Of a stretch of DNA of 64,000 bases, positions 17,610 to 59,191 are shown piece after piece. Location of the stretch: assembly GCA_031177685.1 (NCBI GenBank), contig JAPSGI010000010.1, forward strand, positions 62,001 through 126,000, written 5' to 3'. The stretch is from Solirubrobacteraceae bacterium (GTDB lineage: Bacteria; Actinomycetota; Thermoleophilia; Solirubrobacterales; Solirubrobacteraceae). Made by a program: the position numbers and the translations under genes. The notes beneath the pieces are model-generated. The model saw only the letters and a program-made list of their open reading frames with translations, was not told the DNA's origin and did no database searches. The number at the start of each line of letters is the position of its first letter. Within the stretch, counting starts at the first letter, position 1.

Positions 17610-18418
17610 TGCGCCTGCACGTCCAGGAGAGCGGCCCGCCGGACGGCCCGCCGCTGCTGCTGGTCCACGGCTGGCCGCAGGACGGCTCCGCCTGGCGCGA
17701 CGTGGTCGCGCGCCTGGACGGCCGCTTCCGCTGCCTGGTGCCCGACCTGCGCGGGCACGGCCGCTCGCCCGCCCCGCGCGAGGGCTACGAGAAGGAGCGC
17801 CTGGCCGACGACGTGCTCGAGCTGCTCGACGATCGCGGCCTGGACCGGGTCCTGTACGCCGGCCACGACTGGGGCGGCTGGATCGGCTTCCTGCTCGGCA
17901 TCCGCACGCCGCACCGGCTGACCGGGCTGCTCGCGCTGTCGGTGGGCCATCCGTGGCCGTCGCGCCGCGACCGGCTCAACCCGCTGCGCCTCGCGGCGCT
18001 GGCCTACCAGCTGCCGCTGGCCACGCCGCTGCTCGGCCGGGCCCTCACCGAGACGGGCGCGGTGCGCGGTGCCCTCGTGCCGCCCCACGCGCGCATGGGC
18101 GCGGTCCCCGGCCACGTCACCGAGGCGATGTACCGCACGTTCCTGCTGCGCGAGCTGCCCGGCCTGGCCACCGGGCGCTACGCCGACGCGCGCTTGACCG
18201 TGCCCACGCGCCTGGTGGTCGGCGAGCGCGATCCCGTGATGCGCGCCGCAGACCTGCGCGGATACGAGGCCCACGCGGAACACATGACCGTGGAGCGCAT
18301 CCCCGGCGCGGGCCACTTCTTGCCCGAAGAGCGGCCGGAGCTGATCGCGGAGCGGATCGCGCGGCTGGCAGGGGTGGGTAACGAAAGCGTCCCCTCAGGA
18401 AGCTTTCGTGCGGGCTAG
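17609..18418 (+). CDS. Alpha/beta hydrolase (epoxide hydrolase/dehalogenase-like)
   Basis: The 269-residue protein has LLVHGWPQDG (oxyanion loop), DLRGHGRS, the nucleophile elbow GHDWGG with Asp near residue 92 and a late GAGHFLPEE His. An Asp nucleophile rather than Ser places it with epoxide hydrolases and haloalkane dehalogenases. The substrate is not known. Its ATG shares an A with the stop of the SDR gene, so it is part of the stress-promoter operon. Its 3' end contains a hairpin and shares CTAG with the convergent gene. Confidence 0.85.
   Translation: MRLHVQESGPPDGPPLLLVHGWPQDGSAWRDVVARLDGRFRCLVPDLRGHGRSPAPREGYEKERLADDVLELLDDRGLDRVLYAGHDWGGWIGFLLGIRTPHRLTGLLALSVGHPWPSRRDRLNPLRLAALAYQLPLATPLLGRALTETGAVRGALVPPHARMGAVPGHVTEAMYRTFLLRELPGLATGRYADARLTVPTRLVVGERDPVMRAADLRGYEAHAEHMTVERIPGAGHFLPEERPELIAERIARLAGVGNESVPSGSFRAG
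18381..18409. terminator. Hairpin at the junction of two convergent genes
   Basis: ACGAAAGC (18381-18388) pairs perfectly with GCTTTCGT (18402-18409) over a 13-base loop. It lies in the last codons of the hydrolase gene, just before the CTAG where the two convergent genes meet, and could stop transcripts from both sides. There is no U-run. Confidence 0.4.
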
Positions 18419-18882
18419 GCGGGATCGCGGCGGTTCTCGGCGGCCTTGTAGGCGATCTGGAGGAAGTCCGAGACCCCGGCCATGGCGTTCATGGCCATGA
18501 CCAGGCGCGTGACGCGGGGCGCGTAGAGCAGCCCGAGCGTGAAGCCCGCGGCGATCCACTGCGCGAGGCAGAACGGGCACAGGACGAGCTCGCCGACCGC
18601 GCGCCTGAACATGCCGCCGCGGGCCGGGCGCTCCTGTTCCTCGTCCGGCCCGGTCCGCTCCACCTCGGTGAACGGCGCGCGCACCGCGCTGGTCACCTTC
18701 TCCTTGGCCACCAGGCGCGCGAGCTTCTGGGTGGCGAGGCCGCCCAGGACCACGTCGCCCGCCCGCACCCGCGACGGCAGGCGGCCCTGGCGCCTCGCCG
18801 CAGCGGTTCCGACGGAGAACAGCGTGGCGAAAGTCGCGATCACCACGCCGTACTCGACCTGCTGCTTGTCCTCCGCCTCCAT
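18415..18882 (-). CDS. DUF1360 family membrane protein
   Basis: The 155-residue protein matches the DUF1360 family: hydrophobic helices near 10-28 and 115-135, the central ARLVAKEKVTSAVRAPF segment and LCPFCLAQWIAAGF near 103-116, where the CPFC motif is conserved. Function is unknown; a Bacillus relative is a spore or stress membrane protein. It follows the eRF1-like gene with a 2-base gap and so should share its GGGTAG promoter. Confidence 0.82.
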   Translation of the reverse strand: MEAEDKQQVEYGVVIATFATLFSVGTAAARRQGRLPSRVRAGDVVLGGLATQKLARLVAKEKVTSAVRAPFTEVERTGPDEEQERPARGGMFRRAVGELVLCPFCLAQWIAAGFTLGLLYAPRVTRLVMAMNAMAGVSDFLQIAYKAAENRRDPA

Positions 18883-18884
18883 CG

Positions 18885-20024
18885 TCAGAAGCGCAGCACG
18901 GCCGCGACGCCGCCGTGGGCCGCGATCTCGTCGCCGTGATCGCGCACGGCCAGCGGCTCGGCGGACTGCAGGACGGCGGCCTCGATGGCGTCCTCGAGGA
19001 CGTTCGCGCGCCGGTCCACCGGCGTGCCGTCGACCGGACACTCGGCGGCTTTCGTGCCCAGCCAGCCGCAGCGCGGGCACGACACGCCCGGCGCCGTGTC
19101 GCCGTCGCGGAACAGCAGCACCTCGACGCGGCGCTCGTTGAGCGCGGTCAGGACCGCGTCGAGCCCCGCGGCCGCCCGGCCCCCGCCGAGCCCGCCGTTC
19201 AGGCGCGCGAGCGCCGCGCCCTCGCGCCCGCGGTCGTGCTCGTCCAGCAGCGGCTTGACCGCGCGCACGACGTCGTCGTGGCCGGCGTGCTCGACGTCCA
19301 GGTCGACGCGGCCGCACAGCGTCCCGCGCAGGTACGGGTGCAGGTGGTGCTCGAACGCCGGGAACAGCTCGGCCGCCGCCCCCACGACGAGGCGGTCGAA
19401 CGGCGCGCGCTTCCAGGCGCGGAAGAGGGCGTGCGCCACGTTGCGCAGGTGGTCCTCGACCTCCTTCTCGATGCCGCGCTGGTAGCGCGCCTGCGACCAG
19501 CCGCCCTGGTCGTGCTGGCCATGGACGTCGTCGTCGAGCGCCGCGACCTCCTGCAGCGACTCGCGCCCGCCGCGCAGGATGCGGCCGTGGCGGCGATTGA
19601 CCAGGACGACGCACACCCGCTCGCGGGTGCCGAGCCGGGCGAGCGGCTCGACCCAGGGCGTGTCGTCGATCACCGCCTCGGAGGCCACGGGCCGTGGGAG
19701 GCGCAGCGCCTCGAACAGCCCGGCCGGACCGCACGCGAACAGCGCGAGCGAACCGGCCTGGCGCGCGGAGAAGTCGCGCTCGAAGAACTGCCGCGCGCGC
19801 TCGACGTCCTCGCGCAGCGCGACCTGCTCGTCGTGCTCGGAGCCGTTCTCGCGCGCCTGGCGCGCGGCGTCGTCGAGCAGCGACGTGATCGCGCTGGCCC
19901 GCGCGGGCGGTGTGGCGAAGTCGGAGGGGTCGAGGTTGAGGTAGAGCGAGAGAACCTTGCCGCGCTCCGGGCGCAGCCCCGAGAGGCGGCGCAGCGCGGC
20001 GCTGTCGAGGTCGTCGATGCGCAT
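18885..20024 (-). CDS. Vms1/Ankzf1-like, eRF1-family protein (baeRF type)
   Basis: The 379-residue protein resembles bacterial members of the archaeo-eukaryotic release-factor family: an N-terminal alpha/beta part with LSLYLNLDPS, then a VLVNRRHGRILRGG strand, the conserved QGGWSQARYQRGIEKEVEDHL near 175 and a C-terminal zinc ribbon (CPRCGW ... CPVDG). Eukaryotic Vms1 releases peptides from stalled 60S subunits; a similar role on bacterial ribosomes is inferred, not shown. GTTG-N16-GGGTAG lies 9 bases before the ATG, so it probably belongs to the stress regulon. It is followed by the DUF1360 gene. Confidence 0.8.
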   Translation of the reverse strand: MRIDDLDSAALRRLSGLRPERGKVLSLYLNLDPSDFATPPARASAITSLLDDAARQARENGSEHDEQVALREDVERARQFFERDFSARQAGSLALFACGPAGLFEALRLPRPVASEAVIDDTPWVEPLARLGTRERVCVVLVNRRHGRILRGGRESLQEVAALDDDVHGQHDQGGWSQARYQRGIEKEVEDHLRNVAHALFRAWKRAPFDRLVVGAAAELFPAFEHHLHPYLRGTLCGRVDLDVEHAGHDDVVRAVKPLLDEHDRGREGAALARLNGGLGGGRAAAGLDAVLTALNERRVEVLLFRDGDTAPGVSCPRCGWLGTKAAECPVDGTPVDRRANVLEDAIEAAVLQSAEPLAVRDHGDEIAAHGGVAAVLRF

Positions 20025-20033
20025 GGAAGGTCC

Positions 20034-20059
20034 CTACCCTTCCGCGGCCCGGCTCCAAC
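20034..20059 (-). promoter_or_regulatory. SigB/SigF-type promoter before the eRF1-like gene
   Basis: On the minus strand GTTG (20059-20056), 16 bases and GGGTAG (20039-20034) fit the stress pattern. The ATG lies 9 bases downstream of the -10 element. Confidence 0.6.
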
Positions 20060-20113: not shown

Positions 20114-20144
20114 CTTGTGACTATGTACAAGATCTGACGCAGAT
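20114..20144. promoter_or_regulatory. AT-rich leader with two adjacent inverted repeats
   Basis: CTTGT-8-ACAAG (20114-20131) is directly followed by ATCTG-ACG-CAGAT (20132-20144). The whole stretch 20101-20180 is far more AT-rich than its surroundings. It precedes the small zinc-ribbon gene and could hold operators for an unknown regulator. Confidence 0.4.
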
Positions 20145-20154
20145 TTTCGGAAAT

Positions 20155-20412
20155 ATGGTCGATCAGTACAGTGAGGGAATGACGGTCGAGGGAGGCGTCA
20201 CGGTCGTACGGCTGCGCTGCAGCCGGTGCGGCGCGGAGTCCTACGCGACCGCTTTGATCGCGGGCGCTCCCTGCCCGGACTGCCACGGCGAGCGCCAGGC
20301 GCTGGAGACGCTCGCGGACCGTCGCAGCGGCGAGGAGCGTCGCGGCCCATCGCGTCTGCAGCGCGTGTGGGATTACGACCCGCGCTCCTGGTTCGACCGC
20401 CGCCAGGCCTGA
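20155..20412 (+). CDS. Small zinc-ribbon protein
   Basis: The 85-residue protein has a CSRCG ... CPDCH pair near 28 and 44 that should bind one zinc ion, followed by a charged tail with RRSGEERRGP and DYDPRSWFDRR. No specific family is recognised. The start is uncertain: ATG at 20155 is used, and ATG at 20179 is an alternative. It lies 22 bases before ligD in the same direction, but ligD has its own -10-like hexamer. Confidence 0.6.
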   Translation: MVDQYSEGMTVEGGVTVVRLRCSRCGAESYATALIAGAPCPDCHGERQALETLADRRSGEERRGPSRLQRVWDYDPRSWFDRRQA

Positions 20413-23831: not shown

Positions 23832-23958
23832 AGTTCGTATTCAGAGATTCCGGTTGCAACCGGATGCCTCGGCCAACGAACGTGGGCACGCGCTCGCCGG
23901 AAGCACCGGTGTCCGCGCGGACCATCGGGTCCCAGGAAAACCTACTTTCGGAGACAAG

Positions 23959-24741
23959 ATGTCCGCCCTTTCGCCCGCCCCGTTGGCCCCCACCGTCGCG
24001 GCTCCTCGTCGTCCGCTCGACGAAGCGATGGAGTTCCGCCGCTACCGCGAGACCGGCGACACCACGGTCCGCGACGGGCTGATCGAGCGCGCACTGCCGC
24101 TCGCCCACCAGGTGGCGCGGCGCTACCACCGCAGCGGCGAGCCGTTCGACGACCTGCTGCAGGTGGCGCGGCTGGGCCTCTGCAAGGCGGTGGAGCGCTT
24201 CGACCCCGAGCGCGGCGTGGCGTTCTCGACGTACGCGGTGCCCACCATGGTCGGCGAGATCAAGCGCCACTTTCGCGACACCGGCTGGGCGATCCACGTT
24301 CCGCGCAGCCTCCAGGAGCGCGTGCTGAAGGTCGAGCAGGCGAGCAAGTCCCTCTCGTCGCGACTCGGCCGCGCGCCCACCGTGCCCGAGCTGGCCGCAG
24401 CCACGGAGCTCGACGTGGAGGAGACCCTGGAGGCGCTGGAGGCCTCCTCGGCCTACGAGACGCGCTCGCTGGACGCGCCGGCGCCCGCCGACGACCAGGA
24501 CGGCCGCTCGTATGCGGAGACCATCGGCGGCGAGGACGGCGCCTACGAGCTGGTGGACGACCGCGGCGCGGTGGCCCAGGCGATGCGCACGCTGCCGCTG
24601 CGCGAGCGGCGCATCCTGCACATGCGCTTCATGCAGGACATGACGCAGTCGGAGATCGCCGAGCGCATCGGCGTCTCCCAGATGCAGATCTCCCGTCTCC
24701 TGCGCCGCTCGCTGAACAAGCTGCGCGAGGAGGCCGGCTAG
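23959..24741 (+). CDS. SigB/SigF-type RNA polymerase sigma factor
   Basis: The 260-residue protein is a group 3 sigma-70: region 2 DLLQVARLGLCKAVERFDPERGVAFSTYAVPTMVGEIKRHFRD (positions about 65-110), region 3 around ERVLKVEQASKSLSSRLGRAPTVPELA, and region 4 LPLRERRILHMRF ... TQSEIAERIGVSQMQISRLLRR. Length and lack of region 1.1 are typical of SigB/SigF stress factors. The ATG at 23959 is preceded by GGAG at the right distance. It should read the GGGTA-type promoters seen across the window. Anti-sigma and antagonist candidates are encoded at 10174, 29323 and 46441, but none adjacent. Confidence 0.9.
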   Translation: MSALSPAPLAPTVAAPRRPLDEAMEFRRYRETGDTTVRDGLIERALPLAHQVARRYHRSGEPFDDLLQVARLGLCKAVERFDPERGVAFSTYAVPTMVGEIKRHFRDTGWAIHVPRSLQERVLKVEQASKSLSSRLGRAPTVPELAAATELDVEETLEALEASSAYETRSLDAPAPADDQDGRSYAETIGGEDGAYELVDDRGAVAQAMRTLPLRERRILHMRFMQDMTQSEIAERIGVSQMQISRLLRRSLNKLREEAG

Positions 24742-26246: not shown

Positions 26247-26930
26247 ATGGCAGAAGAGCAGACGGCGCGCGACGCCAAGCTGGTGCAGTACCTCACCGAG
26301 GCGTACACCACCGAGAAGCAGCTCGAGACGGCGCTGCAGGCGCACATCGGGATGACGTCCCGCGCGCCGCTGAAGAAGCGCCAGCAGGAGCACCTGCGCG
26401 AGACCAAGCGTCACGCGCGCGAGGTCGAAAAGCGCATCAAGAAGCTGGGCGGCCAGGCGAGCACGCTCAACGAGATCGCCACCGAGGCGACCAAGCGCGC
26501 GAGCTCGCTCGCCGGCAAGGCGATGGCCGCGGCGCAGGGACCGCTGCACGCGGTGCGCGGCACCGGCGCGGCGGAGATCCAGCTCAAGAACGCCCGCACG
26601 GACCTGCAGTCCGAGGCCGAGGAGATCGCGCACTACACGATCATCGAGACGCTGGCCGAGGCGGTGGGCGACCGCGAGACGGCGCAGATGGCGAGGTCGA
26701 TCCGCCGCGAGGAGGAGCGCATGGCGAAGTTCCTCGAGCGCCAGATCCCGGTGCTGACGAAGGCGGTCGTCACGGAGGAGATCCCGGCGGCCGAGCGCAA
26801 CGGCGGCGCGCGCCGGCGCAACTCGCGCTCGCGCACGCGGGCGCGCACCGCGGCACGCTCCGGCGCCTCTCGCCCCGGCGGCTCGCGCTCGAGCGCGTCG
26901 CGCCGACGGACCGCCGGCAAGTCGAAGTGA
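26247..26930 (+). CDS. DUF892/YciF-like protein with histone-like tail
   Basis: Residues 1-185 form a helical domain of the DUF892/YciF type: LVQYLTEAYTTEKQLETALQAH, the HLRETKRHAREVEKRIKKLGG segment and AEEIAHYTIIETLAEAVGD, with Glu/His residues that could form a ferritin-like metal site. From about 188 a strongly basic Arg/Ser/Ala tail of some 40 residues resembles histone H1. The fusion suggests a DNA-associated stress ferritin, comparable in idea to Dps, but this is inference. The ATG at 26247 was chosen by domain start; GGGTAT lies upstream. Confidence 0.8.
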   Translation: MAEEQTARDAKLVQYLTEAYTTEKQLETALQAHIGMTSRAPLKKRQQEHLRETKRHAREVEKRIKKLGGQASTLNEIATEATKRASSLAGKAMAAAQGPLHAVRGTGAAEIQLKNARTDLQSEAEEIAHYTIIETLAEAVGDRETAQMARSIRREEERMAKFLERQIPVLTKAVVTEEIPAAERNGGARRRNSRSRTRARTAARSGASRPGGSRSSASRRRTAGKSK

Positions 26931-26943
26931 CGGCGGAAGCGCC

Positions 26944-27183
26944 CTAGGGGCGTTCCGCCGGGTCGACCGAGGGCGTGTAGGAGGCGTCCTCGGTCGTCGG
27001 CACGCCGCGCTTCTCCAGGCGCCGGCCCTCCACCGTGCGACGCCCGGTCAGGCCGGCCCAGGCGAACGGCGCGACGAGCAGCACGACCGCGACCGGGATG
27101 CCGATGAACGGCGTCGCGCCCATCAGGCCCACCAGGAGCGCCAAGCCCGCGATCGCGAGGAAGACGCCGACGGCGACGTGCAC
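26944..27183 (-). CDS. Small two-helix membrane protein
   Basis: The 79-residue protein has two hydrophobic helices at about 3-22 and 27-46, linked by a short GATP turn, followed by a charged tail (GRRTVEGRRLEKRG). No family name is recognised, although similar small proteins are common in actinobacteria. It begins 1 base after the stop of the Pro-rich small gene, so both form an operon with a GGGTAG promoter. Confidence 0.7.
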   Translation of the reverse strand: MHVAVGVFLAIAGLALLVGLMGATPFIGIPVAVVLLVAPFAWAGLTGRRTVEGRRLEKRGVPTTEDASYTPSVDPAERP

Positions 27184-27184
27184 G

Positions 27185-27421
27185 TCAGCCCTCCTCGCCC
27201 GGGATCTCCGGGCCCTTGGGGTCGGTGGCCGGGACGTCGGGCCCCACGGGGCCGGGCTCGTCCGCGGGCTGCGGCTCGGGCATCTCGGGACCCTGCGGGA
27301 CCGACGGGTCCTCCGATGGCGGCCCCTCGGGCACGGACGGCCCCGTCGGCGGGTCCGGCATCGGCTGGTCGGGCGAGGCGGGCTCCGGGACCTCCAGGAG
27401 CGGCGTGTGCATTGGGCTCAT
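27185..27421 (-). CDS. Pro/Glu-rich small protein
   Basis: The 78-residue protein consists mostly of Pro, Glu, Asp and Gly in irregular PEP/GPxxP units, with no hydrophobic segment, and should be disordered and acidic. Function is unknown. A GTTG-N15-GGGTAG promoter lies 9 bases before the ATG at 27421; a second in-frame ATG at 27412 is possible. It heads a two-gene operon with the small membrane protein and is divergent from the PP2C phosphatase gene. Confidence 0.6.
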   Translation of the reverse strand: MSPMHTPLLEVPEPASPDQPMPDPPTGPSVPEGPPSEDPSVPQGPEMPEPQPADEPGPVGPDVPATDPKGPEIPGEEG

Positions 27422-27430
27422 GCCGGCGAT

Positions 27431-27455
27431 CTACCCGTGCGGGAGGACCGGCAAC
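27431..27455 (-). promoter_or_regulatory. SigB/SigF-type promoter before the Pro-rich gene
   Basis: On the minus strand GTTG (27455-27452), 15 bases and GGGTAG (27436-27431) precede the start by 9 bases. Confidence 0.6.
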
Positions 27456-27478
27456 CGCACCGCTCTAGGATCTGTCGC

Positions 27479-29326
27479 ATGGGGCCGGGACGCCGGAACG
27501 GGTGGATGGTCCTCTGCGCCGCGGTCGCGACCGCGGTGGCGGTGGTGGACGCGCTCGTCGGCGGCGCGCTCGCGCTGATCGCGCTGCTCAGCGCCGGCCC
27601 GCTGCTCGGCTCGACCCGCCTCGGCCCGGGGCGCACGGCGGCGCTCGCGGCGTACGCGGTGCTGCTCGGCGCGGGGCTCGGGCTGCCCGAGGACGACTTC
27701 GCCTCCGGCGACCACGTCATACGCGTGGCGATCCTCGGCGCGCTCTGCGGCGTCGCGGTGTGGGCGGCCTATCTCGGAGACCGCCTGCGCAGCTCGCGCG
27801 ACCAGCTCAGAGCGATCCTGGAGAACGTGGCCGACGGCGTGGTCGCGCAGGACCGCTCGGGAGGGCTCGTGTTCGCCAACCAGGCGGCCGTTCGCGCCGT
27901 GAGCGACGCGGTCGCCGGCCGCTTCGAGGTCCGCGACGAGGACGGACGGCCGCTGGATCCCGACGAGCTCCCCGCCCGCCGCGCGCTGTCCGGCGAGGAG
28001 CCCGAGCCGACCGTCGTGCGCTTCCGCGAGCACGACACCGGCGAGGAGCGCTGGTCGCTCGTCAAGGCGACTCCGCTGCGCGACGAGGCCGGCGAGGTGG
28101 ACATGGCGATCTCGGTCATGCAGGACCTCACCGACCGCATCCGCGCCCAGCGCGCGGAGCGCTTTCTGTCCGAGAGCAGCAAGCTGCTGTCCACCTCGCT
28201 GGACTACGGGACCACGCTGCGCCGCGTGGCCGAGCTGGCCGTGCGCGAGATGGCCGATTGGTGCGGCGTCGACGTGGTGGACGAGAACGGGCAGCTCGAC
28301 CGCGTCGCGGTGGCGGGCGCCGATGCGCCCGGCGACGCCGCGCCGCCCGAGTGGCGCAGGCCGTCGGACGACGCCTACGGCGTGCTGCGCAGCGGCAGGT
28401 CGTCGCTCGGGCCCGGCGCGACGATGGCGGTCCCGATGGTGGCCCGCGGCCGCCCGGTCGGGGTGCTGTCGTTCGTCGCCTCCGGTCCGCGGCGCTACGA
28501 CTCCGAGGACCTCCTGCTGGCCGAGGAGCTCGCGCGGCGCGCGGCGATCGCGGTCGACAACGCGCGCCTGTTCGGCGAGCGCGCCTACATCGCGCGCGCG
28601 CTGCAGGAGAGCCTCCTGCCCCCCGCGCTTCCCGAGATGCCGGGCGTCGACGTGGCGGCGCGCTTTCGCGCCGCCGGGCAGGGCAACGAGGTCGGCGGCG
28701 ACTTCTACGACCTGTTCGACACCGGGCACCCCGACCGGTGGGCCGTCGTGATCGGGGACGTGTGCGGCAAGGGCGCGCCGGCCGCGGCGATCACCGCACT
28801 CGCCCGCTACACGCTGCGCGCGGCCGCGATGCGGGGGTTGCGGCCCAGCGCCGTGCTGCACGTCCTCAACGACGCGATGGTGCGCCAGCGCCGCGACGAG
28901 GAGTTCTGCACCGTGGCCTTCGGCCGCCTGGACCGCAACGGTGCCGGCGCGCGGCTGACCGTGGCCAGCGGCGGGCACCCGCTCCCCTTCGTGATCCGCG
29001 CGGACGGTCGCGTGCAGAGCGCGGGCGCTCCCGGCACGCTGCTCGGCGTGACGGCGGACCCCGCGCTGGCCGACGCGTCGGTCGATCTGGACCCCGGGGA
29101 CGCCGTCGTCCTCTACACCGACGGCGTCACCGACGCGCGCGCCCCGGCGCGCGTGCTCACGCAGGCCGACCTCGCCGACGTGCTGCGCGGATGCAAGGGA
29201 CTCGACGCGGCGGCGATCGCCGAGCGCCTGGAGCGGGCCGCCACCGCTTCCAACGGGGATCCGCGGGCTCCGGTCGAGCCGCGCGACGACGTGGCGATCC
29301 TGGTGCTGCGCGTGCTCGGTGGCTAG
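27479..29326 (+). CDS. RsbU/SpoIIE-type PP2C phosphatase with PAS and GAF domains
   Basis: The 615-residue protein has two or three membrane helices (about 8-100), a PAS domain (about 108-220), a GAF domain (about 228-375) and a SpoIIE-type PP2C phosphatase (about 385-610) with GNEVGGDFYDLF near 402, IGDVCGKGAPAA near 424 and LYTDGVTDA. Such proteins dephosphorylate a STAS antagonist and thereby free a SigB-type sigma factor. The STAS gene converges on it, sharing CTAG. TAGGAT lies 7 bases before the ATG, so it may be leaderless. The signal sensed by PAS/GAF is unknown. Confidence 0.9.
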   Translation: MGPGRRNGWMVLCAAVATAVAVVDALVGGALALIALLSAGPLLGSTRLGPGRTAALAAYAVLLGAGLGLPEDDFASGDHVIRVAILGALCGVAVWAAYLGDRLRSSRDQLRAILENVADGVVAQDRSGGLVFANQAAVRAVSDAVAGRFEVRDEDGRPLDPDELPARRALSGEEPEPTVVRFREHDTGEERWSLVKATPLRDEAGEVDMAISVMQDLTDRIRAQRAERFLSESSKLLSTSLDYGTTLRRVAELAVREMADWCGVDVVDENGQLDRVAVAGADAPGDAAPPEWRRPSDDAYGVLRSGRSSLGPGATMAVPMVARGRPVGVLSFVASGPRRYDSEDLLLAEELARRAAIAVDNARLFGERAYIARALQESLLPPALPEMPGVDVAARFRAAGQGNEVGGDFYDLFDTGHPDRWAVVIGDVCGKGAPAAAITALARYTLRAAAMRGLRPSAVLHVLNDAMVRQRRDEEFCTVAFGRLDRNGAGARLTVASGGHPLPFVIRADGRVQSAGAPGTLLGVTADPALADASVDLDPGDAVVLYTDGVTDARAPARVLTQADLADVLRGCKGLDAAAIAERLERAATASNGDPRAPVEPRDDVAILVLRVLGG

Positions 29327-46440: not shown

Positions 46441-47406
46441 CTAGCGGGCGATGCGAAAGCGCACGACCGTACCGCCGGCCCGCGGGCGGACCTCCACGAG
46501 GTCGCACAGCTGGTGCACGATCCACAGGCCGCGACCGTCCAGGGCGTCCAGCGTGGGGCGCCGGCGTCCGGCCAGCGGATCGTGGATGCGGCCGCGGTCG
46601 CGCACCTCGCCGACGACGGCGCCGCCGTCGCGCCACACCGCGAAGTCGCCGCGCCCCCCGCCGTGCAGGACGCTGTTGGTCGCGGCCTCGCTGGCCGCCA
46701 GCACGAGGTCCGCCTCGCGCTCGGGGGGCAGCCCGACGATCGCCGCGTGGTGCGCGACCAGCGCGCGGACCGCGGCGATGTCGTCGCGGCCGAAGCTCAT
46801 CCGCTCGGGCTCCACCGGCGGGTCGGGCAGGTCCTCGTCGTAGAGATCGAGCGCCGCGAGCGGATCGACGTAGGTGTCGCTGGGAACCCGCCGCCCGCCC
46901 TCCCACATGAAGGGATGGGTCCGCCAGGCCTCGGCGATCGCGTCCTCGCCCAGCGTCGTCACGTCGTAGGGGCACAGCAGCGTCCAGGGCGGGTTGGCGT
47001 CGAACGCGAGGTTCAGCAGCGCCTCGTGGCGCCGGCACTCCACCATCTCGTCGGCCGTTCGCGCCGCCCAGACGGGCTCGCCCACGCCGCGGACCGGGCG
47101 TCCCTGCGCGGTGTGCTCGTCCACGAAGTCCCGCCAGGCCGGGATGATGCGGCCCGGGTTGCGCCCCAGCTCCTCCATGTTCGCGAACAGCACCCGCGCG
47201 GCGTCCCCGTTCAGCGCGCGCTGCAGCTTCGCCGACCGGCGCGCCGGGACGGCCACGAGCACCGCCTCGCCGGCCTCGACGCCCTCGCGGACGAACGGGG
47301 CGACCTCCTCCACGAACCCGACGTCGCCCGCGTACAGCAGCGCGTCGTGCGCGAAGCCCTCCGCATGCGCGCAGGGAGCAGCGGACCGTTCCTCCGTCGA
47401 GCTCAT
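46441..47406 (-). CDS. MEDS-domain sensor with RsbW-type ATPase domain
   Basis: The 321-residue protein combines an N-terminal MEDS domain (about 15-175; HDALLYAGDVGFVEEVAPFVREGVEAGEAVLVAV, and LCPYDVTTL) with a C-terminal HATPase_c_2 domain (about 195-321; LAASEAATNSVLHGGG as N-box, RDRGRIHDPL and GRGLWIVHQL). MEDS domains occur in DcmR-like sensors, and the ATPase domain in anti-sigma kinases. It may thus link a small-molecule signal to sigma-factor control, which is inference. The ATG at 47406 is preferred to a GTG at 47424. Confidence 0.83.
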   Translation of the reverse strand: MSSTEERSAAPCAHAEGFAHDALLYAGDVGFVEEVAPFVREGVEAGEAVLVAVPARRSAKLQRALNGDAARVLFANMEELGRNPGRIIPAWRDFVDEHTAQGRPVRGVGEPVWAARTADEMVECRRHEALLNLAFDANPPWTLLCPYDVTTLGEDAIAEAWRTHPFMWEGGRRVPSDTYVDPLAALDLYDEDLPDPPVEPERMSFGRDDIAAVRALVAHHAAIVGLPPEREADLVLAASEAATNSVLHGGGRGDFAVWRDGGAVVGEVRDRGRIHDPLAGRRRPTLDALDGRGLWIVHQLCDLVEVRPRAGGTVVRFRIAR

Positions 47407-47482
47407 CCCAGAGTTTTCGCGCACCCGGGCAAATGTACCCTCGAACGCACCTTAGGCAACGGAAATGTGCACGAAATCACAT

Positions 47483-58828: not shown

Positions 58829-59191
58829 TGGAGACGGTGGGAATCGAACCCACGTCCGCGGTCGCGTGAAAGGTGGCTTCTACGAGCGTAGCCGGCGCTC
58901 TGGTCTCGTCCCTCGGTTGCCGCGCCGGCGGGGTTCCGGGGGACCAGTCTCCTGAAGGTGTCCCCGGTTTGGCGGAGGCGGGCCGCGCCGGGTGAGCCTG
59001 CTGTCTGATCCCGGCGATCCACCCCGCAGGCGAAGGTGGGCCGAGACCTCGGGCTTAGCTAGTGACTAAGCGGCGAGGGCGTACTCGTGAGAGTCCGCAC
59101 TTATGTTTTCCCCGGGTGTTTTACGAGGCCTCCCGGGACCTCGGCTCGCGACCACCCCCACGGACAGACCACGTCGAAGCCTGTCGTCCCC
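58829..59191 (-). ncRNA. ssrA: tmRNA (one-piece)
   Basis: The 5' end GGGGACG (59191-59185) pairs with CGTCTCC (58836-58830) to form the acceptor stem, with one G-U pair and an A discriminator at 58829. The T-arm GTGGG-TTCGATT-CCCAC lies near the 3' end. The tag ORF is ADSHEYALAA followed by TAG (59098-59066). The CCA tail is not encoded: the genomic bases after the discriminator are TGG. tmRNA with SmpB rescues stalled ribosomes and marks the peptide for proteolysis. Confidence 0.95.
59066..59098 (-). other. tmRNA tag-peptide reading frame
   Basis: GCG at 59098-59096 is the probable resume codon, and the frame ends with TAG at 59068-59066. The encoded tag is ADSHEYALAA, whose YALAA end is the usual ClpXP degron. 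Confidence 0.9.

What the first reader, a model, noticed from the sequence alone, without database searches (positions are those of the whole stretch)
18885..20059. Vms1/eRF1-like ribosome factor under a stress-type promoter, in a window that also carries tmRNA
Seen: conserved GWSQARYQRGIEKEVEDH segment and C-terminal zinc ribbon, with GTTG-N16-GGGTAG 9 nt upstream and a coupled DUF1360 membrane gene. Known: Vms1 frees peptides from stalled large subunits in eukaryotes. Inference: an additional ribosome rescue or hibernation pathway, tied to the membrane by DUF1360, that acts under stress.
Basis: partly seen in the sequence, partly recalled or inferred. Interest (0 to 1): 0.52.

Follow-up and report, generated by a model that had tools for sequence, protein, structure and literature searches.

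The report
Stress-promoter Balon-like ribosome hibernation factor
A soil actinobacterium appears to make, under stress, a relative of the ribosome-parking protein Balon that keeps the outline of a release-factor loop but has a tryptophan where the peptide-cutting glutamine should be; it is a new member of a known kind of protein rather than a new rescue pathway.

Summary
The gene (18885-20024, minus strand, 379 aa) encodes a three-domain aeRF1-type protein of Pfam baeRF_family10. Its nearest solved relatives are ribosome hibernation factors: Msmeg1130 (Z 32.5) and Balon (Z 26.9), ahead of archaeal RF1 (Z 18.8). Vms1 is not the best model. The loop is GGWSQ: tryptophan sits where GGQ has its catalytic glutamine. 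GGQ and NIKS occur in 0 of 81 aligned family members. I favour a non-hydrolysing, A-site-blocking hibernation factor (0.6) over a peptide-releasing rescue factor (0.25).

The promoter is real. GGGTA ends 9-13 nt before the start codon in 28 of 77 distinct upstream regions, against 0.2% background, often with GTT further upstream. The spacing predicts a leaderless mRNA. The same geometry recurs before other genes in the window, which also encodes a SigB/F/G-type sigma factor.

The membrane link is not supported: DUF1360 lies 2 nt downstream here and about 0.4 kb downstream in the sister species, with no conserved linkage elsewhere. tmRNA is present, about 39 kb away.

Verdict: a new member of a known kind, with two points worth testing: the GGW loop and the conserved leaderless stress promoter.

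The parts
18885..20024 (-). baeRF_family10 / Balon-like protein, 379 aa: N domain about 1-121, middle (eRF1_2-like) domain about 123-256, Pelota-like C domain about 257-379
   Evidence: ORF; Pfam PF18854 71.6 bits over cut-off 27.1; profile match to Msmeg1130 over profile positions 5-380, E 1.3e-24; model pLDDT 87.9, Z 32.5 to 8v9l
19491..19505 (-). GGWSQ, residues 174-178, the loop that corresponds to GGQ of aeRF1; W176 aligns without a gap to the catalytic Gln
   Evidence: alignments; W in 71 of 81, Q178 in 74 of 81, GGQ in 0 of 81
19029..19079 (-). zinc-ribbon-like insert in the C domain, C316-x2-C319 ... C329-x2-D332
   Evidence: sequence and alignment; metal binding not shown
20034..20059 (-). 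SigB/SigF-type promoter-like element GTTG-N16-GGGTAG, 9 nt before the ATG, so a leaderless mRNA is expected
18415..18882 (-). DUF1360 gene, 155 aa, start codon 2 nt after the stop of the baeRF10 gene; linkage not conserved
   Evidence: Pfam PF07098 98.2 bits
23854..24741 (+). SigB/F/G-type sigma factor; candidate reader of the GGGTA promoters (context)
   Evidence: TIGR02980 287.8 bits, over cut-off 234.35; Sigma70 regions 2, 3 and 4
27035..29326 (+). GAF/PAS-SpoIIE phosphatase, RsbU-like stress regulator (context)
   Evidence: Pfam; RsbU likeness recalled

Best explanation
The protein is a general-stress-response ribosome hibernation factor that works like Balon. Step 1 (well supported by sequence, not shown by experiment): under stress a SigB/F-type sigma factor transcribes the gene from a promoter abutting its start codon, giving a leaderless mRNA. 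Step 2 (inferred from fold): the three-domain, tRNA-shaped protein enters the ribosomal A site without reading a codon, since no NIKS motif is present, possibly with EF-Tu as for Balon. Step 3 (inferred): its aeRF1-like GG loop reaches the peptidyl-transferase centre but carries Trp instead of the catalytic Gln, so it occupies or shields the centre without cutting the peptidyl-tRNA, and translation stops reversibly. DUF1360 is a lineage-specific operon neighbour and not part of the mechanism.
For: Best and full-length match among solved structures by profile is Msmeg1130 (E 1.3e-24, positions 5-380). By fold, the first six rows shown are Msmeg1130, Balon and Rv2629 entries (Z 32.5 to 25.3), ahead of aRF1 (Z 18.8); Foldseek also ranks Msmeg1130 first. 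GGQ in 0 of 81 and NIKS in 0 of 81; none of the 30 loops listed has GGQ. The Balon paper states that Balon, Msmeg1130 and Rv2629 lack both motifs and bind the A site, and that the two mycobacterial proteins slow in vitro translation 15-fold (PMC10901736; abstract, passages, sections). Promoter conservation. Promoter class around this locus: GGGTA lies 9-13 nt before a gene-like start at 11 of 41 sites in the window, against 0-7% for the 19 other orderings of the same bases. SigB/F/G sigma gene about 4 kb away.
Against: The loop still looks like an aeRF1 loop (GG, Ser, Gln at +2, RYxR), whereas Balon and Msmeg1130 have lost it; PMC6514570 (section 7) reads the Gln of family 10 as possibly catalytic. 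NCBIfam's three hibernation-factor equivalogs are not met (69.9, 50.2 and 31.4 bits against 480, 320 and 330). The HPF/RaiA gene of this genome is not beside it, and no GGGTA element was seen before HPF, although Balon genes are often next to RaiA. 49 of 77 upstream regions lack GGGTA at 9-13 nt, among them most of those outside the Solirubrobacterales. I found no expression or ribosome-binding data for any member of this clade.
Confidence: 0.6

Rival explanations
1. A codon-independent peptidyl hydrolase for ribosome rescue. Q178 of GGxSQ does the work of the GGQ glutamine, as proposed for aVLRF1, acVLRF1 and family 10, and frees nascent chains from stalled ribosomes under stress.
For: Q178 is present in 74 of 81 aligned members (one search pattern contained it, so biased upward). 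PMC6514570 section 7 says that aVLRF1 and acVLRF1 carry GGxSQ and that family 10 keeps a conserved Gln and could be active. Pfam acVLRF1 matches the middle domain at 41.9 bits, over its cut-off.
Against: Ungapped alignments put W176, not Q178, on the catalytic Gln; Aeropyrum aRF1 has GGQSQ, that is, both residues. Members occur with GGWSV, GGWSS, GGMSA, or with no loop at all, as expected if catalysis is not essential. NCBIfam acVLRF1 cut-off not met.
Confidence: 0.25
2. A Pelota/Dom34-like splitting or recycling factor: it enters stalled ribosomes with a GTPase and separates the subunits without hydrolysis.
For: Shared fold with Pelota/Dom34 (Z about 11-15); no catalytic Gln in either.
Against: Pelota and Dom34 rows stand far below Msmeg1130 and Balon in Z; no dedicated GTPase partner was identified.
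Confidence: 0.08
3. A membrane-coupled ribosome factor that works with DUF1360.
For: The two genes are 2 nt apart on one strand here, and DUF1360 is about 0.4 kb downstream in the congener (L045).
Against: DUF1360 is in the held flanks of 2 of 80 loci and is on other contigs or far away in the eight other surveyed genomes that have both genes.
Confidence: 0.04

Closest known systems
Msmeg1130 / Rv2629 / Balon (AOC03_06830) ribosome hibernation factors
   Same: Full-length three-domain fold (Z 32.5, 25.3 and 26.9); no GGQ, no NIKS; tied to stress
   Different: The window protein keeps GG, Ser and RYxR of the aeRF1 loop, with Trp at the Gln position, and a Cys3-Asp ribbon; it is far below NCBIfam's equivalog cut-offs
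Pfam baeRF_family10 (PF18854), described by Burroughs and Aravind (PMC6514570)
   Same: Member by curated score (71.6 against 27.1); has a Gln in the loop as they describe for family 10
   Different: The alignments here put Trp, not that Gln, on the catalytic position
Archaeal/eukaryotic RF1 (4af1, 3agk, 1dt9)
   Same: Domain order and loop context HxxGGxS...RYxR
   Different: No NIKS; Trp for the catalytic Gln
Vms1/ANKZF1 and acVLRF1
   Same: GGxSQ motif of acVLRF1; related middle domain (Pfam 41.9 bits)
   Different: Curated NCBIfam score not met; nearest solved relatives are Balon-type proteins

Membership tests
baeRF_family10 (PF18854) | score over Pfam gathering cut-off | tested here: met
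   71.6 bits against 27.1
Balon-type hibernation factor | full-length three-domain fold like Balon/Msmeg1130 | tested here: met
   Z 32.5 over 366 residues; profile match over positions 5-380
Balon-type hibernation factor | absence of GGQ and NIKS | tested here: met
   0 of 81 with either
Balon-type hibernation factor | score over NCBIfam equivalog cut-offs (NF052288, NF052289, NF052287) | tested here: not met
   69.9, 50.2 and 31.4 bits against 480, 320 and 330; so I say that it works like one, not that it is one of these three equivalogs
Balon-type hibernation factor | A-site binding, EF-Tu contact, inhibition of translation | not testable with these tools
   needs purified protein and ribosomes
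acVLRF1 / Vms1 | NCBIfam acVLRF1 cut-off (NF041024) | tested here: not met
   21.4 against 125 bits; the Pfam acVLRF1 domain cut-off is passed, 41.9 against 27.1
acVLRF1 / Vms1 | GGxSQ loop | tested here: met
   GGWSQ, residues 174-178
acVLRF1 / Vms1 | fold nearest to Vms1 | tested here: inconclusive
   no Vms1 entry in the 50 rows shown, which excludes nothing
class I release factor aRF1/eRF1 | GGQ and NIKS | tested here: not met
   TIGR03676 43.3 against 234.7 bits
SigB/SigF-type promoter | GTT-type -35, about 15-18 nt, GGGTA -10, conserved before orthologs | tested here: met
   the consensus itself is recalled
SigB/SigF-type promoter | transcription by that sigma factor | not testable with these tools
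   needs TSS mapping and a sigma deletion

The most novel reading that the evidence does not exclude
A third mode for the aeRF1 fold: a GGW plug factor that keeps the release-factor loop geometry, reaches into the peptidyl-transferase centre of translating ribosomes and holds the peptidyl-tRNA uncut with a tryptophan. Because its own mRNA is leaderless it could still be made by intact 70S ribosomes after normal initiation has been shut down, so that SigB-type stress directly loads a reversible pause onto ribosomes.
Probability: 0.25. Interest if true: 0.65.

Novelty: new member of a known kind. Interest (0 to 1): 0.42.

Why it matters
Balon showed that bacterial hibernation factors are not only HPF/RMF-like. 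Relatives with a release-factor-like loop have been read in print as possible peptide-releasing enzymes. A conserved Trp on the catalytic position in most members of this clade gives a clean, testable prediction (plug rather than scissors). The conserved leaderless stress promoter links such a factor to a general stress regulon in a little-studied actinobacterial class.

Tried and rejected
Vms1 as closest relative: rejected. DUF1360 as a conserved partner: rejected. A conserved gene neighbour in general: an all-against-all comparison of ORFs within 4 kb of the gene, in the window and 80 loci, gave lineage-restricted clusters apart from the cluster of antisense ORFs of the gene itself (first 25 clusters viewed); HPF was not sought there by name. 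Sigma-70 promoter and terminator scans of the gene region: none found. Literature searches for the combination: Balon; baeRF/VLRF1; DUF1360; one paper, a table row seen; leaderless with SigB, with hibernation, with general stress response, with Solirubrobacter; MSMEG_1130. None of the titles and abstract openings listed describes a Solirubrobacterales family-10 protein or a leaderless SigB-type promoter for a hibernation factor, but I read only the papers named in the report. The 'HP motif' of Balon was not compared, because the text I read did not let me place it.

Rows left out before counts: of 16 matches the profile A1 used 12, the window's own included (left out: one copy without the loop, two divergent ones and a fragment: L012, L014, L015, L017). 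One search kept 80 of 108 confirmed relatives, and one of its two search patterns contained the loop, so loop counts over all 80 are biased; the 40 that match the other pattern give GGWSQ 28 of 40. One search used 77 distinct upstream regions of 78 with at least 60 nt held. One search lists loops for 30 of the matches, and promoters for the 29 with 60 nt held; start codons there were chosen by a rule on distance to the VLS block.

Full report
What is there. The ORF at 18885-20024 on the minus strand (ATG, 379 aa) is a member of Pfam baeRF_family10 (71.6 bits, cut-off 27.1), with weaker matches to acVLRF1 and to baeRF families 3, 12 and 2. NCBIfam's hits include the MSMEG_1130, Rv2629 and AOC03_06830 (Balon) families of ribosome hibernation factors, all far below their equivalog cut-offs. 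It is the only baeRF_family10 match in its genome. Records of relatives are named Solirubrobacterales, Solirubrobacteraceae and Thermoleophilia, so the window most likely comes from class Thermoleophilia of the Actinomycetota; the window's own record is not named. In the same class 133 of 299 genomes drawn have a match to the profile.

Fold. A profile from 12 sequences (A1) matches Msmeg1130 best among solved structures, over nearly its whole length (E 1.3e-24), then archaeal RF1 (6.8e-17, 5.7e-15) and Rv2629 (1e-12). The AlphaFold2 model has mean pLDDT 87.9. VIA-align 2 gives Z 32.5 to 8v9l (Msmeg1130, 366 residues, rmsd 3.6), 26.9 to 8rd8 (Balon), 25.3 to 8v9k (Rv2629) and 18.8 to 4af1 (aRF1); Foldseek also ranks Msmeg1130 first. 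Domain orientation differs between free and bound factors, so the lower Z of eRF1 may partly reflect that. pLDDT falls to 56 in the block 171-180, that is, at the loop itself, so the model says nothing reliable about loop shape.

The loop. In aeRF1 the GGQ glutamine promotes peptide release. Here the ungapped alignments set HDQGGWSQARYQR against HKMGGQSQRRYER of one archaeal aRF1 (3agk) and against KQRKGGQSAQRFAR of another (4af1), so W176 sits on the catalytic Gln and Q178 lies two residues later. In the alignment of the window protein and 80 loci, W is at this position in 71 of 81 and Q178 in 74 of 81; GGQ and NIKS occur in 0 of 81. Because one search pattern contained the loop, the fairer subset is the 40 loci that match the other pattern: GGWSQ in 28 of 40, the rest GGYSQ, GGLSQ, GGWSS, GGWSV, GGMSA and others, one each. 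In the 30 loci, found by profile, GGWSQ is in 22 (the window's own copy included), GGLSQ in 3, GGRSQ in 2, and GGWSV, DGRSQ and DGRSE in 1 each. Gln is thus never on the catalytic position in these sets, and the +2 Gln is common but dispensable. Burroughs and Aravind (PMC6514570; abstract, passages and section 7) note a conserved Gln in family 10 and GGxSQ in aVLRF1/acVLRF1 and suggest possible activity. The alignments here point the other way, but only an assay decides. Balon, Msmeg1130 and Rv2629 lack both motifs and bind the A site (PMC10901736; abstract, passages and sections 8, 9, 10 and 25).

Zinc ribbon. The insert in the C domain reads CPRC...CPVD. Of 81 proteins, 51 were classed CxxC..CxxD (the class also accepts Asp or Glu at some positions, as in L045), 14 are Cys4, 14 have no Cys there and 2 fit none. 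It is variable, so unlikely to be central.

Promoter. GTTG-N16-GGGTAG at 20059-20034 ends 9 nt before the ATG. Across 77 distinct upstream regions GGGTA ends 9-13 nt before the start in 28, against 0.20% of random positions in the same loci; of the 37 with GGGTA at 3-26 nt, 14 have it at exactly 10 nt. Upstream of it GTT lies at 18-21 nt in 16 of 37; shuffling gives a mean of 1.3 (sd 1.1, highest count 6 in 2000 shuffles). In one search, 17 of 29 have it at 8-14 nt. Sequences are related and the counts are not independent. In the window 11 of 41 GGGTA sites lie 9-13 nt before a gene-like start; the 19 other orderings of these five bases give 0-7%, and the two highest of those, GGTAG and AGGGT, overlap GGGTAG-type sites. 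In the whole genome GTTT-N13-17-GGGTA occurs 21 times against 7 for the pattern read backwards; 4 of the 21 are in this window. Of the 21, 11 lie 9-14 nt before an ORF of at least 128 codons, 5 lie 21-55 nt before one, and 5 before none. The -10 to TSS distance of about 6-8 nt is recalled; with it these mRNAs have no or almost no leader. In M. tuberculosis 26% of genes with a primary TSS are leaderless, and such mRNAs gain share in starvation (PMC3898074, abstract only). A SigB/F/G-type sigma factor lies at 23854-24741 (TIGR02980 287.8 bits), a second elsewhere in the genome (280 bits), and a GAF-SpoIIE phosphatase at 27035-29326. That this sigma factor reads these promoters is inference.

DUF1360. 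It lies 2 nt after the stop and is the genome's only copy. Of 31 surveyed genomes 14 have the baeRF10-type protein and 14 have DUF1360; 10 have both, and the two are close only in G000 and its congener G001 (several of the others are on short contigs). In the 80 loci (flanks up to 8 kb, many shorter) DUF1360 appears in 2: L045, the congener, about 0.4 kb downstream, and L086, about 2.1 kb upstream. The membrane idea therefore rests on one genus.

tmRNA. Present at 58829-59191, as in nearly all bacteria (recalled); 39 kb away, so not evidence of a link. HPF is present in the genome about 20 kb beyond the window's end, with no GGGTA element before it.

Judgement. Most likely a Balon-like hibernation factor under general stress control (0.6). 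A peptide-releasing rescue role (0.25) cannot be excluded from sequence. The family and its fold are known; the Trp on the catalytic position and the leaderless stress promoter are the points that I did not find in the papers searched, and both can be tested directly.

Noticed in passing
window 11071+, 14238-, 14288+, 16733+, 23772-, 31840-, 38066-, 38870-, 41785+, 43631+, 47440-: GGGTA elements about 9-13 nt before gene-like starts: an island of apparent leaderless SigB-type genes (SDRs, epimerase, FAD-Rieske oxidoreductase, HRDC exonuclease, MEDS-HATPase, a sigma-70 family gene and others).
   Followed up: partly
window 46444-47427 (-): MEDS sensory domain fused to an RsbW-like HATPase, itself behind a GTT-N-GGGTA element; could be a feedback regulator of the sigma factor.
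   Followed up: no
L012 (G010), L055, L056, L091, L102: Orthologs that have lost or rewritten the GG loop while keeping the rest of the protein, some still with the GGGTA promoter.
   Followed up: partly
L009 and L016 (G017): Two diverged copies in one genome, both with GGGTA near the start.
   Followed up: no
window 20137-20412 (+): Small divergently transcribed zinc-ribbon-like protein between this gene and the next large ORF; no Pfam family over its cut-off.
   Followed up: no
window 26247-26930 (+): DUF892 (ferritin-like stress protein family, function recalled) close to the sigma factor and SpoIIE phosphatase.
   Followed up: no
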